A stretch of DNA of 22,044 bases from a virus, in the IMG/VR virus record IMGVR_UViG_3300029798_000040, positions 1-22,044 of that record; one strand, 5' to 3'. Made by a program: the position numbers and the translations under genes. The notes beneath the pieces were generated by a model, which was not told the DNA's origin, did no database searches, and saw nothing but the letters and a program-made list of their open reading frames with translations. Positions 5,804-10,536 of the stretch are shown piece by piece; the stretch's first letter is position 1; every line of letters begins with the position of its first letter.

Positions 5804-6919
5804 TTATTCTTCAAACTCTTTGAAATCTTCAACTGTATTGGAGATATCACTAACATTAGCACCTATTTTAAATAATTCTGATTGATCTACAGATACTTTA
5901 AGTCCTTCCTCTATAGTTTTAACAAATGTAGTATTCTCAAAAATATTTGTCCAGAATTCTTCAGAATCCTCTATATCTTTTTTCCATGCCTTTTTAAATT
6001 CTGGTAATTCAGGGACAGCATACATCATTCCTTCTTTCATTAAAAAGCCAGTCTCTAATGCAAGATCAAACAGGCCTGAATATTTCTTAATCTGTCCACC
6101 TTCAGGTATTGTAATTGGAAATTTAATTCCTTCTTTTATAAATCTAGATTTCTCTGCTTTAATCATAAAATCGAACCCAGCTTCTTCCTTATTATCATTC
6201 TTACGACGAGACATGATGAGTGCAGAATTTGCAGATAGGAGTACTCCTGTTCCACCACTTATTACTGCTTTGCTATAGATTTCCTGAGTCATATAAATGT
6301 GATTAACAACAAAAAGTGGAATATTTTTCAGATTTACTCTTGGCGTTATCATTCTAAAAAAGCTTTTTAACATTTTTGCGCGGGACATATCTTGAGTTGA
6401 TTTTCCATCCTGTGCATCAGATACTTCTTTAAGAGATGCCAAATTTCCAATACTATCTATTAAAATGAAGATGTGTTCTCCATTATTAATGGAATCTACC
6501 TGACTTATAATATCGTTCTTAAGTTTGTCTATATCAACTATAGGTGTTATGAATATTCTGTTAATATCTATCCCAAATGAAGCTAAATACTCTGGGGTAA
6601 ATGAGAACTCTGAATCATAAAGCATTCCTATCGCGTCTTCATGTGCGTCCATATATGCCTTTAAACAAAGAAGGCAAATGTTAGTCTTAAAGGTTTTTGA
6701 CAGTCCCGCAAATACAGTTAAACCTCGTGTTATTCCTCCTTCAAAAAATTTACCAGATAGTGCTAAATTTATTACTGGGATAGGAGTTGGGATGGATTCC
6801 TTTATCATATAAAGATCAGAATCTGAAAAAACTGACGATTCTTCAACAGAAGACGTCTTCTTCATTCTTTTTAGGATATCATATGCTTTGCTATTTTTTG
6901 TTACTTCTGCTTTTGCCAT
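5804..6919 (-). CDS. uvsX: Recombinase UvsX (RecA-like)
   Basis: A strand-exchange ATPase that coats single-stranded DNA and drives recombination-dependent replication and repair. The 371 residues follow T4 UvsX throughout: PTPIPVINLALSG near 44-56, Walker A GLSKTFKT at 72-79 (T4 has GPSKSFKS), YDSEFSFTPEYL near 101-112, Walker B IFILIDSIGN at 150-159, the VVNHIYMTQEIYSK region with the following GGGTG-like segment (L2 loop), and an acidic C-terminal tail (TVEDFKEFEE) like that of T4, which modulates loading. Length is close to T4's 391. Neighbours are the tRNA-like RNA 45 nt upstream and helicase 41 downstream. There is no clear Shine-Dalgarno site. Confidence 0.96.
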   Translation of the reverse strand: MAKAEVTKNSKAYDILKRMKKTSSVEESSVFSDSDLYMIKESIPTPIPVINLALSGKFFEGGITRGLTVFAGLSKTFKTNICLLCLKAYMDAHEDAIGMLYDSEFSFTPEYLASFGIDINRIFITPIVDIDKLKNDIISQVDSINNGEHIFILIDSIGNLASLKEVSDAQDGKSTQDMSRAKMLKSFFRMITPRVNLKNIPLFVVNHIYMTQEIYSKAVISGGTGVLLSANSALIMSRRKNDNKEEAGFDFMIKAEKSRFIKEGIKFPITIPEGGQIKKYSGLFDLALETGFLMKEGMMYAVPELPEFKKAWKKDIEDSEEFWTNIFENTTFVKTIEEGLKVSVDQSELFKIGANVSDISNTVEDFKEFEE

Positions 6920-6964: not shown

Positions 6965-7109
6965 TGGAGTAAATGGGGTTCGAACCCAATAAATAATCAC
7001 GGTATTACTAAAGAACATTCTCTGTTCATCAAGTCCTCCAATGTTGCGATCATTGTAGAGTTATAACCAGTTCTGTTTTTCGCTAATTATTTCTAACCTG
7101 TGTTACCCC
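6965..7109 (-). ncRNA. 145-nt tRNA-like RNA with tmRNA-like closing helices
   Basis: The minus strand gives a 5' GGGGTAA (7109-7103) that pairs with a 3' TTACTCC (6972-6966; one G-U), followed by A as discriminator. Before it stands a T arm, GGG TTCGAAC CCC. A further 9-bp helix joins AAATAATTA (7092-7084) to TGATTATTT (6999-6991), placed where tmRNA has its P2 helix; no D arm is seen. Inside lie CAATG-ATCGCAA-CATTG (7055-7039, a 5-bp stem with a 7-nt loop like an anticodon arm) and GAACA-GAGAA-TGTTC. It begins 6 nt after the tmRNA 3' end, the spacing of phage tRNA clusters. CCA is not encoded. It is far longer than a tRNA and shorter than any usual tmRNA; a degenerate or interrupted tRNA is an alternative. 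Confidence 0.6.
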
Positions 7110-7115
7110 ATTTTG

Positions 7116-7481
7116 TGGAAGTGGAGGGAGTCGAACCCTCGTACAACCAAACGAAAAATAAAAGTGTTACAGTCATGTTTGTGTTATTGTTCGGTAATTG
7201 ACTTCCCACAAACAGGAAGAGATATACCTAGTTTCAAATTTAGTACATTGGTGAGATGAAACTTCGGACCAAAGACGACTGCTAATATTTTTAGATGATA
7301 ACTACTCAGCGTCTATATAGTTATCAAATTTGGTGTTTGTCTGTTAAGATCAAGCAGCCATGCGATACTCGAAAGTGTCTGCATTTATTGTTTACATAGA
7401 CTTCTTTAACGAGTCCATCCATGCTGAAACTCGAACTGCACTCCTATTTAACTATTTGACTGGCAAAATCCCGTCACCCCC
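7116..7481 (-). ncRNA. ssrA: Transfer-messenger RNA (tmRNA)
   Basis: A 366-nt tmRNA, an RNA that is charged with alanine, enters stalled ribosomes and adds a degradation tag. The acceptor stem pairs GGGGGTG (7481-7475) with CACTTCC (7123-7117; two G-U), followed by discriminator A at 7116. The T arm is GAGGG TTCGACT CCCTC. Helix P2 is 11 bp: AAATAGGAGTG (7449-7439) with CACTTTTATTT (7166-7156). A hairpin ATGGACT/AGTCTAT fits pseudoknot 1, ending 13 nt before the resume codon. The tag frame (7382-7350) reads GCA GAC ACT TTC GAG TAT CGC ATG GCT GCT TGA, giving ADTFEYRMAA, with the expected terminal M-A-A. An 8-bp hairpin GATAACTA/TAGTTATC and others follow. CCA is not encoded. No SmpB gene is visible, so host SmpB is presumably used. 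Confidence 0.94.
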
Positions 7482-7495
7482 ATTATTACAACTAG

Positions 7496-7684
7496 TTACT
7501 CAGTTAAAAGAGTTTTATCAGATGAGTTTTCTTCTGCTACGGTTGAATTATCTATCAATGCTTGCTTATAGCCCAGCAACTGTTGAAACTCTGTAGACAA
7601 ATTGTTGATCGTCTGATTCTCTTTTGCAACCTCATTTTGAATTTCCTTTAGTCTCGATTCTACTTGTTCAATTGTTATTGCCAT
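7496..7684 (-). CDS. Small coiled-coil protein
   Basis: A 62-residue protein whose residues 5-45 (EQVESRLKEIQNEVAKENQT onwards) look like an amphipathic coiled coil, ending in an acidic, Ser/Thr-rich tail. No family recognised. The start is well supported: GAGG stands 8 nt before the ATG. The leader and first codons are identical over 21 nt to those of the gene at 7711-7947. Its stop lies 14 nt before the 5' end of the tmRNA, so the RNA is probably processed from the same transcript. Confidence 0.75.
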   Translation of the reverse strand: MAITIEQVESRLKEIQNEVAKENQTINNLSTEFQQLLGYKQALIDNSTVAEENSSDKTLLTE

Positions 7685-7696
7685 TGTTTTTCCTCG
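7676..7696 (-). repeat. 21-nt duplicated ribosome-binding and start region, copy 1
   Basis: On the minus strand this segment runs CGAGGAAAAACAATGGCAAT plus one further A, covering the Shine-Dalgarno site, spacer, ATG and the first codons. It is identical to 7939-7959, which begins the preceding gene. Confidence 0.8.
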
Positions 7697-7710
7697 GTTT
7701 AATTATTTAT

Positions 7711-7947
7711 TTATGAAATATAGATTCCTTTTCCTCTAACAGAAATATTTTCTATGTTGTCTTCGCCAAAATGCTTAAGTATTTTGACAATACTGCTTCC
7801 AACTACTAAATAAGTTTCCCACTTATATTCAGATAAATTTCCAGAAACAATGCCTAAAGAATTAGGCAAAACTTCTACACCTTTCTCGCTATTGGTGTTC
7901 GGGATCCTTACTGTTACCTCATAAGATGTCTTTTCTACTATTGCCAT
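7711..7947 (-). CDS. Small beta-rich phage protein, function unknown
   Basis: A 78-residue protein with alternating hydrophobic residues (SYEVTVRIPN, WETYLVVGSSIVKIL) that suggest a small beta-sheet domain, ending in VRGKGIYIS. No motif or family recognised. Start at ATG 7947 with GAGG 8 nt upstream, within a 21-nt segment repeated at the start of the next gene (7684); the two proteins both begin MAI but are otherwise unrelated. It follows the C-terminal polymerase gene by 19 nt and likely shares its transcript. Confidence 0.75.
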   Translation of the reverse strand: MAIVEKTSYEVTVRIPNTNSEKGVEVLPNSLGIVSGNLSEYKWETYLVVGSSIVKILKHFGEDNIENISVRGKGIYIS

Positions 7948-7959
7948 TGTTTTTCCTCG
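7939..7959 (-). repeat. 21-nt duplicated ribosome-binding and start region, copy 2
   Basis: Identical over 21 nt to 7676-7696, covering the GAGG site, the spacer and the codons for M-A-I of the gene at 7711-7947. Outside this stretch the two leaders differ. Confidence 0.8.
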
Positions 7960-7966
7960 TTTTTAA

Positions 7967-9064
7967 TTAAAATAAATCTATCAAATTCACACTTGGTTTT
8001 ACTTGCCATCCTACTGCATCAAGAATATTAGAAATAGGTGCAACAAACGCCTTTTGAAACTGCAATTCATAATCTATATACTCCTCTAACTCAAATTCTT
8101 TTGGCATTAAAGAAACAAACCCTATTACATTTGAATTTAAAGGATTAGGCATCTTAAGATATGTAAATCTTATTTTATCGCCTTCATGAATATGCTCATA
8201 CTTCTTATCTAATCCTAATTTATCTACATATCTATTGAAGTTTAAAGCTCCTCTTACATGTATTGGGCATCCTTTGTTAAGATTTCCATTTATATCTATC
8301 CATTTTTTAAGTTCGTTAATTCCTCTAGGAAAAGATGTAGAATTAACTCCGCTAGATATAAATTTATTCTTAAATTGTTTAATATGTTCTTGAACAGCTT
8401 TTTCACCAGAATCAAATATTATTTGAACGGCTTCTTTAAGAGAAGATCTACATATTTCGGGAGTAGATGATCTTATTATCTCTATTCCTTTAACTTTCAT
8501 TTTTGGTTTTGCATAAACAATTCCTTCGTTAGAATGAACCATAAGAGCATATTTCTTTCTACATAAAAATATACCTGCACTTGCCAAAGATTCTGATTTG
8601 ATAACCATTCTTGGTTTATAACAATTCAAATATTCATAAAGCTCGGCAAATGATTTTGCCATATTAGGAAGTATTTTCTTTTCTGTTATTTTTTGCATTG
8701 TTGATATAACAGTAGAAGTATCATTTACATCTGGAAAATATTTATTAATCATATCCTCCATTGTTATAAACACTGAATCAGTATCAATGGCAATAATATA
8801 GTCTTTATCTGTCTTTAAAACCTTATTCATATATTCATTGGTAGACTTTTCGCACCATTTAACAACACTCTGACCTGTTAAAGTTACTGCAGAAGCCATT
8901 CTTACATCAAAATACCTAAAATATCTATTAGCTAGGGCTCCGTATAACATATTCAAAGCTACCTTTAACGCATTTTGAGTAGAATTATTAGCTCCTATTT
9001 CATCTTCCAAATTCTTTTTATATGAAATAAGTTCCTCATCACTCATCTCCTCTATTGCTTTCAT
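7967..9064 (-). CDS. 43: DNA polymerase gp43, C-terminal part (split gene)
   Basis: The C-terminal half of a family B replicative polymerase. Residues 34-53 are motif B in the fingers, with K34, N38, Y41 and G42 (KVALNMLYGALANRYFRYFD; T4 has KILINSLYGALGNIHFRYYD), and residues 91-98 are motif C with the catalytic DTDS at 94-97. The thumb follows, with CPIHVRGALNFNRYV matching T4 CPFHIRGVLTYRRAV. The C-terminus SVNLIDLF resembles the T4 tail SLDFLFG that binds the sliding clamp. Motif B has methionine where Ser or Ala is usual. The ATG at 9064 overlaps the stop of the N-terminal gene as TAATG, so the two halves are probably made in equal amounts by coupled translation and assemble into one enzyme. 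Nothing of the usual protein seems missing at the junction. Confidence 0.94.
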   Translation of the reverse strand: MKAIEEMSDEELISYKKNLEDEIGANNSTQNALKVALNMLYGALANRYFRYFDVRMASAVTLTGQSVVKWCEKSTNEYMNKVLKTDKDYIIAIDTDSVFITMEDMINKYFPDVNDTSTVISTMQKITEKKILPNMAKSFAELYEYLNCYKPRMVIKSESLASAGIFLCRKKYALMVHSNEGIVYAKPKMKVKGIEIIRSSTPEICRSSLKEAVQIIFDSGEKAVQEHIKQFKNKFISSGVNSTSFPRGINELKKWIDINGNLNKGCPIHVRGALNFNRYVDKLGLDKKYEHIHEGDKIRFTYLKMPNPLNSNVIGFVSLMPKEFELEEYIDYELQFQKAFVAPISNILDAVGWQVKPSVNLIDLF

Positions 9065-10536
9065 TATAATTTTCTTCTTTTTATTTCTTCTAGTACTTTC
9101 TGCAATTTAGCTTCACCTGCAAGCATCTTCTTTTTATATTTTGTTCTAGTCTCGTAAAGTTCTTCTAGAATTTCTGGAATAAACCCTTGTTTTTTCTTAG
9201 AAAAATATACCCCGTTTGCTGCTAAAGTAATATCTTCTTTAAGCAATTCTGAATTATCATACTCTTTATTTAATATAGAATCTACAGTAACCTGAGAATG
9301 TTTTCCATTAATTAAAGTTTCTGGAGAAATGTTCCACTGAATAAGTACAGATGGATATAGCGAATTCAAATCAAACGTTGATACCCATTTATGCATACCT
9401 ACGATTGGATCTTTTACAAAACCACCTGGATATTCTTCTTTTCTTGTATCTTTAGGTTTTGGTGGAATTGCTATTTTCTTTTTGTAAAGATGATTATATA
9501 TCTTAATATCCCAATATTTCACAGTGCCAAATACATCCTCGTAATTTACTTTTCCGAGGTATGCATATGTAACTACTAAATCAAAATATTTAAGTTTATC
9601 ATCTAGTTTTTTAACCAATTCTGTATCACGTAAATTGTATCTAATAAAAGTTTTCCAATCTTTTTTATAAAGGTCCATGAGAGAATCGAATTCGGAATAG
9701 TCTAGTTTTTTCTCTCCAAGTTCTTCATAACAAATATTATTAAGAGAATATGATTCTCTAGGCGTCATATTAAATTTCTTATATGTCTCCATATAATCTA
9801 AAATAGCAATTCCTGGAATAGTATACTGTTGAATTTCATTTCCTACTAATTCTGGTGCATGTCTCCAAGGAGACATTAAATTTGCATATTCTCTTTTACC
9901 TAAAAATGAAACTCTATTGAATAAATATGGAATATCAAATCCATTAATATTCCATCCCGATATGATATCCGGTTTTTCGTGTTGAACAAACTTAAAAAAG
10001 TCATGCAACATTTCTAATTCATCGGTAAATTCTCTATATTCATGATCTTCTCTTTCTGCTTCAAACTTACCGAGTCCCCAAGAAACATATTCTATATTAT
10101 TTATCCACACACAGATTGCATTTATTTTCTGATGAGGATTTCCCCAAACTAATTTTTTAATATCCTCATGACCACCTTCTGTTTCTATTTCTATATCAAA
10201 TATTAAAGTCTTTATGAGATCCATTTTATGTTCAACTTCACCAGGGATGATGTCGTTGATAAATGCATATTTTTGATCACGAGTATCTATAAGTCCACAA
10301 ATATTATCTAATCCATTCACATATTCTTTCATATCAAATACAGAACGCATTTTTACGGGCTTTACTGGATCTCCGTAAATAGTTCTCCAACCATCTGATT
10401 CTTCTATTTTATTTGTAGGTACAAATATTGTTGGCTGGTAATCAACTTTTTTAGAAACATATTTTCCATTTGTGTCGTAACCACGAACATAAATAGAACC
10501 TCTATGATATTGTGAATTTGTATAAAAGAAACCCAT
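9064..10536 (-). CDS. 43: DNA polymerase gp43, N-terminal part (split gene)
   Basis: A 490-residue N-terminal half of a family B polymerase holding the proofreading exonuclease and the first polymerase motif. Exo I is LIFDIEIE (D114, E116), Exo II is SGWNINGFDIPYLFNR (D201), and Exo III is YNLRDTELV (Y300, D304). Motif A is STFDLNSLYPSVLIQWNISP (D389). The chain ends in the fingers with a helical segment (ELYETRTKYKKKMLAGEAKL) and the stop at 9064. The C-terminal gene begins on the same bases (TAATG) and carries motifs B and C. Split gene 43 is known from some T4-like Aeromonas phages. The region upstream holds a large hairpin; no clear Shine-Dalgarno site is seen. RegA may repress this mRNA as in T4, but no operator is evident. 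Confidence 0.95.
   Translation of the reverse strand: MGFFYTNSQYHRGSIYVRGYDTNGKYVSKKVDYQPTIFVPTNKIEESDGWRTIYGDPVKPVKMRSVFDMKEYVNGLDNICGLIDTRDQKYAFINDIIPGEVEHKMDLIKTLIFDIEIETEGGHEDIKKLVWGNPHQKINAICVWINNIEYVSWGLGKFEAEREDHEYREFTDELEMLHDFFKFVQHEKPDIISGWNINGFDIPYLFNRVSFLGKREYANLMSPWRHAPELVGNEIQQYTIPGIAILDYMETYKKFNMTPRESYSLNNICYEELGEKKLDYSEFDSLMDLYKKDWKTFIRYNLRDTELVKKLDDKLKYFDLVVTYAYLGKVNYEDVFGTVKYWDIKIYNHLYKKKIAIPPKPKDTRKEEYPGGFVKDPIVGMHKWVSTFDLNSLYPSVLIQWNISPETLINGKHSQVTVDSILNKEYDNSELLKEDITLAANGVYFSKKKQGFIPEILEELYETRTKYKKKMLAGEAKLQKVLEEIKRRKL

What the first reader, a model, noticed from the sequence alone, without database searches (positions are those of the whole stretch)
7116..7481. Phage-encoded tmRNA with tag ADTFEYRMAA
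All parts of a one-piece tmRNA are present: a 7-bp acceptor, T arm, 11-bp P2 helix, a pseudoknot-1-like stem upstream and a ten-codon tag ending Met-Ala-Ala-stop. tmRNA genes in phages are uncommon, and this one sits inside the replication operon of a T4-like phage. The phage tag may differ from the host tag and thereby redirect which proteolysis route clears stalled products.
Basis: partly seen in the sequence, partly recalled or inferred. Interest (0 to 1): 0.75.

Follow-up and report, generated by a model that had tools for sequence, protein, structure and literature searches.

The report
Phage tmRNA with rewritten degradation tag
A T4-like virus of bacteria carries its own copy of the RNA that rescues stuck ribosomes, related to that of green sulfur bacteria but with an altered protein-destruction tag that two diverged phages share, and with an unexplained tRNA-like element right behind it.

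Summary
A complete one-piece tmRNA lies at 7481..7116 (minus): ARAGORN calls it, Rfam RF00023 scores 104.8 bits, and every core helix is there. It is in an IMG/VR T4-like phage contig; an identical 112-kb contig has one tmRNA, one tRNA and no SmpB. The only diverged relative found with it (tmRNA about 67% identical outside the tag) keeps the fold through compensatory changes and encodes the same tag, ADTFEYRMAA, with only synonymous and stop-codon changes. The tmRNA is sister to those of green sulfur bacteria (Chlorobia): pseudoknot 1 is 50/54 identical to Chlorobium. The tag is not: 68 of 98 Chlorobia genomes carry ADDYSYAMAA (or ADDHSYAMAA), and the phage tag occurs in none of about 85,000 species genomes scanned. 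It keeps the C-terminal MAA, so the likely job is ordinary trans-translation with host SmpB and ClpXP-type clearance. Redirected proteolysis is untested. Phage tmRNAs are known (402 phages by 2021), so this is a new member with two unusual features. The host is inferred from the tmRNA alone.

The parts
7116..7481 (-). one-piece tmRNA gene (5' end 7481, discriminator A 7116; CCA not fully encoded)
   Evidence: ARAGORN, RF00023 104.8 bits, helices verified
7475..7481 (-). acceptor stem 5' strand GGGGGUG (pairs with 7123-7117; G3.U70)
7117..7123 (-). acceptor stem 3' strand CACUUCC
7454..7462 (-). P2 5' strand CAGUCAAAU (pairs with 7152-7144)
   Evidence: replaced by UUGCUAG/CUAGUAA in L003
7144..7152 (-). 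P2 3' strand GUUUGGUUG
7395..7433 (-). pseudoknot 1 (CGAGU/ACUCG and CAUGGA/UCUAUG)
   Evidence: the region just before the tag is 50/54 identical to Chlorobium
7350..7382 (-). tag reading frame GCA GAC ACT TTC GAG TAT CGC ATG GCT GCT TGA = ADTFEYRMAA*
   Evidence: same peptide in L003
7129..7140 (-). T stem 5' strand and T loop (GAGGG UUCGACU)
6965..7109 (-). second tRNA-like element, 145 nt, starting 6 nt after the tmRNA: acceptor GGGGUAA/UUACUCC with G3.U70, A73, T loop UUCGAAC with a 4/5-bp T stem; internal fold uncertain
   Evidence: only such hit in the 112-kb contig and not seen beside other viral tmRNAs sampled; background; not called by ARAGORN or Rfam
6991..7092 (-). possible 9-bp P2-like helix in the second element (7092-7084 with 6999-6991), in tmRNA register
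   Evidence: shuffles P = 0.0002 in exact register, 0.002 in any register, but not favoured by folding energy
5804..6919 (-). uvsX, downstream neighbour (context)
   Evidence: PHROG UvsX-like recombinase
7496..7684 (-). small conserved ORF upstream of the tmRNA (context; left border of the variable site)
   Evidence: equivalents at L003:3352-3555, L004:5545-5751 and L349:2485-2691

Best explanation
This is a working phage tmRNA gene, derived from the ssrA lineage of green sulfur bacteria, whose tag was rewritten from ADDYSYAMAA to ADTFEYRMAA and then held constant. Inferred mechanism: after transcription and trimming the RNA is charged with alanine (G3.U70, A73), bound by host SmpB, and enters ribosomes stalled on broken mRNAs during infection. 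It adds the tag from the GCA resume codon and stops at TGA. This recycles ribosomes for phage translation and marks the stalled products for a ClpXP-type protease through the retained MAA end. Shown here: the RNA architecture, compensatory change in a relative, constancy of the tag, kinship with Chlorobia tmRNA, and no SmpB found in the contig. Inferred: expression, charging, use of host SmpB, and a Chlorobia host. Whether the four changed residues alter adaptor or protease choice is open.
For: ARAGORN and Rfam calls. A diverged phage, L003, has a tmRNA at 91.2 bits with different but fully paired P2 and PK1 stem a. Its tag is 30/33 identical in DNA against 67% elsewhere (Fisher P = 0.005); all three changes are synonymous or in the stop codon. 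Phage tmRNAs form one clade (SH-aLRT 97) sister to Chlorobiaceae (96). The pseudoknot-1 region is 50/54 identical to Chlorobium while the tag is 23/33 (P = 0.007). 68 of 98 Chlorobia genomes match a tmRNA pattern, all with ADDYSYAMAA or ADDHSYAMAA. The exact phage tag was found in none of the 84,980 species genomes scanned. SmpB was not found.
Against: No expression data. Only two independent phage sequences carry the gene; L004, L349 and L350 showed none. Host assignment rests on the tmRNA: no other convincing match to four Chlorobium genomes was found, and the phage tRNA-Asp is about equally close to other phyla. Bacteria in the tree were picked by tag similarity. A host with exactly this tag may be unsampled. 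The contig completeness is unknown, so SmpB could lie in a missing part.
Confidence: 0.72

Rival explanations
1. The phage tag simply matches the tag of an unsampled host (for example a Kapabacteria-, Balneolota- or basal Chlorobi-like bacterium with an RMAA-type tag), so nothing was rewritten. The tmRNA body resembles Chlorobia only because that family is the nearest sampled one.
For: Tags ADNFGYRMAA (Ignavibacteriota/Kapabacteria), ADNYEYRMAA and ADNYQYRMAA (Balneolota) exist and are closer to the phage tag. Only a single representative per species was searched. Host evidence outside the tmRNA is absent.
Against: The pseudoknot-1 region is 50/54 identical to Chlorobium but 35-37/54 to the RMAA-tag bacteria, and the tree places the phage with Chlorobiaceae at 96 support.
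Confidence: 0.3
2. The changed tag redirects tagged products to another protease or adaptor, or makes phage tagging independent of a host factor that reads the ADDYSY part.
For: Four residue changes, then constancy across two diverged phages. The changes fall in positions 3-5 and 7, outside the MAA end. In E. coli the SsrA tag holds binding sites for SspB, ClpA and ClpX (PMC9382460).
Against: No protease data for this group. The MAA end, which stands where the usual LAA signal is, is unchanged. Constancy between two phages could also reflect exchange of the segment.
Confidence: 0.15
3. The gene is a passively carried or decaying copy of a host gene in a variable, homing-endonuclease-rich site between a small ORF and uvsX.
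For: The site is occupied differently in each relative: tmRNA plus tRNA-like element (window), tmRNA between endonuclease-like ORFs (L003), a 66-aa ORF (L004), nearly empty (L349).
Against: Helices are kept by compensatory changes and the tag by synonymous ones across about 33% divergence.
Confidence: 0.1

Closest known systems
Bacterial one-piece tmRNA (Rfam RF00023), in particular Chlorobiaceae ssrA
   Same: Full-length model match, acceptor with G3.U70, T arm, P2, pseudoknot 1 nearly identical to Chlorobium, ten-codon tag at the same place
   Different: On a phage contig; tag ADTFEYRMAA in place of ADDYSYAMAA; rest of the body about 60% identical
Phage-encoded tmRNAs (mycobacteriophages Bxz1/Wildcat group, Bacillus phage G, Melnitz, others)
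   Same: Complete tmRNA on a phage genome; Melnitz also has T4-like replication genes (PMC4131195, PMC9004378)
   Different: Melnitz has a two-piece tmRNA with a glutamine riboswitch; this one is one-piece, related to green sulfur bacteria, and sits just upstream of uvsX
TLD-only tmRNA of mycobacteriophage DS6A
   Same: The element at 7109-6965 also has a tmRNA-type tRNA-like acceptor/T-arm end and no evident tag (DS6A reported in PMC4131195, PMC11915505)

Membership tests
tmRNA (RF00023) | covariance-model match above the curated cut-off | tested here: met
   104.8 bits against 47
tmRNA (RF00023) | tRNA-like domain: 7-bp acceptor with G3.U70, discriminator A, T arm | tested here: met
   7/7 and 5/5 pairs
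tmRNA (RF00023) | P2 helix and pseudoknot 1 before the tag | tested here: met
   9/9, 5/5, 6/6 pairs; P2 and PK1 stem a covary in L003
tmRNA (RF00023) | tag frame from an alanine resume codon to a stop, conserved as protein | tested here: met
   same peptide in two phages, synonymous changes only
tmRNA (RF00023) | alanylation, SmpB binding, tagging activity | not testable with these tools
   needs experiment; SmpB not found on the 112-kb contig
TLD-only (tagless) tmRNA, for the element at 7109-6965 | alanine-type acceptor, A73, T arm | tested here: met
   7/7 acceptor with G3.U70; T stem 4/5
TLD-only (tagless) tmRNA, for the element at 7109-6965 | P2 helix joined as in tmRNA, no anticodon arm | tested here: inconclusive
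   9-bp helix in register (shuffle P 0.0002-0.002) but folding energy prefers other arms, and an Ala-type anticodon arm CAAUG-AUCGCAA-CAUUG is about equally unlikely by chance (P 0.0024)
TLD-only (tagless) tmRNA, for the element at 7109-6965 | conservation in relatives | tested here: not met
   absent from L003; no other viral contig matched its 3' end

The most novel reading that the evidence does not exclude
The phage encodes a two-RNA system: a complete tmRNA with a tag rewritten away from the host's, plus, 6 nt downstream, a tagless alanine-accepting tRNA-like RNA that could titrate SmpB or alanyl-tRNA synthetase from host tmRNA, or tune phage tagging, much as a TLD-only RNA like that of phage DS6A was reported to inhibit tmRNA.
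Probability: 0.1. Interest if true: 0.75.

Novelty: new member of a known kind. Interest (0 to 1): 0.45.

Why it matters
Why phages carry tmRNA is not settled. Here a phage tmRNA can be set against a donor lineage whose tag is almost invariant, and the tag, not the neighbouring pseudoknot, is what changed and then stayed fixed in two diverged phages. That makes a direct test possible of whether phages use the tag itself or only the ribosome rescue. The tandem tRNA-like element is an extra lead. If the host is indeed a green sulfur bacterium, it also points to a T4-like phage of that group.

Tried and rejected
A covariance model of the joined tRNA-like halves could not bridge the long insert and did not settle the second element's fold; an earlier alignment misaligned the acceptor. 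CRISPR-like or other host matches in four Chlorobium genomes: only the tmRNA matched convincingly. Host by tRNA-Asp: not discriminating. A tag frame in the second element: by eye I found no convincing one. Nucleotide search of named phages with the region: no match. Promoter/terminator scan: no better than shuffles. Phage DS6A was not in the collection under the accession I tried. Paper search for the metagenome ids: none. Searches for more carriers by tag, by pseudoknot pattern and by UvsX found only L003 and the identical contig. One phylum-wide and two class-wide tag searches found no nearer bacterial tag than ADNFGYRMAA/ADNYEYRMAA.

Full report
OBSERVATION. On the minus strand, 7481 to 7116, the window holds a complete one-piece tmRNA gene. 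ARAGORN reports it with tag ADTFEYRMAA and Rfam's tmRNA model matches end to end with 104.8 bits. Written out, the acceptor pairs 7/7 with the G3.U70 wobble that alanyl-tRNA synthetase reads, the T stem 5/5, P2 9/9, and pseudoknot 1 5/5 and 6/6. The tag runs from GCA at 7382 to TGA ending at 7350. The discriminator A is at 7116; CCA is not fully encoded. This is not a chance match.

CONTEXT. The window is a virus record from IMG/VR. It is identical to part of a 112,339-base contig. Neighbours are T4-like replication genes: split DNA polymerase, UvsX, helicase, clamp and clamp loader. In the 112-kb contig ARAGORN finds only this tmRNA and one tRNA-Asp. SmpB is not found, so host SmpB would have to serve; the contig's completeness is not known.

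RELATIVES. Of the nearest relatives by UvsX, one (L003, 72%) has a tmRNA, 91.2 bits. L004 (70%), L349 (73%) and L350 (56%) have none in the DNA held. The stretch between a small conserved ORF and uvsX is a variable site: tmRNA and a tRNA-like element here; in L003 a tmRNA between two ORFs with weak matches to homing endonucleases; a 66-aa ORF in L004; almost nothing in L349. In L003, P2 is UUGCUAG/CUAGUAA where the window has CAGUCAAAU/GUUUGGUUG, and PK1 stem a is CGUCU/AGACG where the window has CGAGU/ACUCG. All remain paired. The tag peptide is identical: 30/33 bases against 67% identity elsewhere (Fisher P = 0.0046), the differences being GAC/GAT, TAT/TAC and TGA/TAA.

ORIGIN AND TAG. A genome-collection scan for similar tags returned mostly Chlorobiaceae (ADDYSYAMAA) with some Ignavibacteriota/Kapabacteria (ADNFGYRMAA) and Balneolota (ADNYEYRMAA, ADNYQYRMAA). 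The exact phage tag was found in none of 84,980 species genomes. By BLAST the best bacterial matches to the window tmRNA are Chlorobium (78% over the first 133 bases). In a maximum-likelihood tree of 112 tmRNAs the two phage sequences form a clade (SH-aLRT 97) sister to Chlorobiaceae (96). The bacteria in that tree were chosen by tag similarity, which limits the claim. The pseudoknot-1 region just before the tag is 50/54 identical to Chlorobium, while the tag is 23/33 (P = 0.007; 0.007-0.057 across eight Chlorobiaceae). In the class of Chlorobium, 68 of 98 genomes match a pseudoknot-plus-tag pattern and every match reads ADDYSYAMAA or, in a few, ADDHSYAMAA. So, if the donor was a member of Chlorobia, four residues (D3T, Y4F, S5E, A7R) changed on the phage branch and then stayed fixed in two diverged phages, while Y6 and the C-terminal MAA were kept.

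MECHANISM. The default reading, from established knowledge of trans-translation, is that the RNA is alanylated, joins host SmpB, enters stalled ribosomes, adds Ala plus ADTFEYRMAA and releases the ribosome; the MAA end then leads to ClpXP-type degradation. The common LAA-type end and the binding sites for SspB, ClpX and ClpA on the E. coli tag are described in PMC9382460. Whether the changed residues shift protease or adaptor choice cannot be decided here. I give redirection 0.15.

HOST CAVEAT. Only the tmRNA points to green sulfur bacteria. The first 20 kb of the window had no other convincing match in four Chlorobium genomes and the phage tRNA-Asp is about equally similar to several phyla.

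SECOND ELEMENT. Six bases after the tmRNA a second tRNA-like element begins (7109-6965, 145 nt): acceptor GGGGUAA/UUACUCC, again G3.U70, A73, T loop UUCGAAC with a 4/5 T stem. A scan for such ends found 4 in 1.2 Mb of other loci and 9 in 2.6 Mb of simulated sequence, none with a P2 longer than 5 bp in tmRNA register, against 9 here. With a looser scan it is the only hit in the 112-kb contig. None of the other viral tmRNA loci examined showed a comparable neighbour; one (L294) has a 74-nt, ordinary-tRNA-sized one. ARAGORN and Rfam do not call it. Its inner fold is uncertain. The P2-like helix has shuffle P of 0.0002 (exact register) to 0.002, but an Ala-type anticodon arm (loop AUCGCAA) is similarly unlikely (0.0024), and energy folding prefers other long arms. 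It is absent from L003 and no other viral contig matched its 3' end, so covariation cannot be tested. It may be a shortened tmRNA, a distorted tRNA-Ala, or a relic. Phage DS6A's TLD-only RNA, reported to inhibit tmRNA (PMC4131195, PMC11915505), makes a regulatory role conceivable, no more.

NOVELTY. Phage tmRNAs are known: ten listed in 2014 (PMC4131195), 402 phages or 2.3% by 2021 (PMC9004378). This is a new member of that kind. Its points of interest are the changed and then constant tag in a body related to the green sulfur bacterial gene, and the tandem tRNA-like element.

Noticed in passing
window 7109-6965, minus strand: 145-nt tRNA-like element with alanine-type acceptor directly behind the tmRNA, not called by ARAGORN or Rfam
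   Followed up: partly
window 10536-7967, minus strand: T4-type DNA polymerase (gp43) split into two ORFs of 490 and 365 aa that meet at 9064; a single 849-aa ORF in L004, and interrupted by a 248-aa ORF in L003
   Followed up: partly
window 20967-20152, minus strand: Thg1-like (tRNA-His guanylyltransferase family) protein by Pfam on a phage with almost no tRNA genes
   Followed up: no
window 22018-20978 and 16947-15835, minus strand: two RNA ligases in one window, the first preceded by an HNH-like N-terminal domain
   Followed up: no
window 11354-10671, minus strand: Hsp20/alpha-crystallin family protein by Pfam
   Followed up: no
L003:4985-5065: possible three-way-junction RNA between the tmRNA and the next ORF, in the place where the window has the second tRNA-like element; seen by eye only
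   Followed up: no
L004:5977-7620 and 7663-9480: uvsX and the helicase gene appear to carry intein-like insertions in this relative
   Followed up: no
L294:8748-9091 and downstream: another viral tmRNA with a long branch in the tree (tag DNAELAMAA) followed 3 nt later by a 74-nt element with a G3.U70 acceptor, probably a tRNA
   Followed up: no
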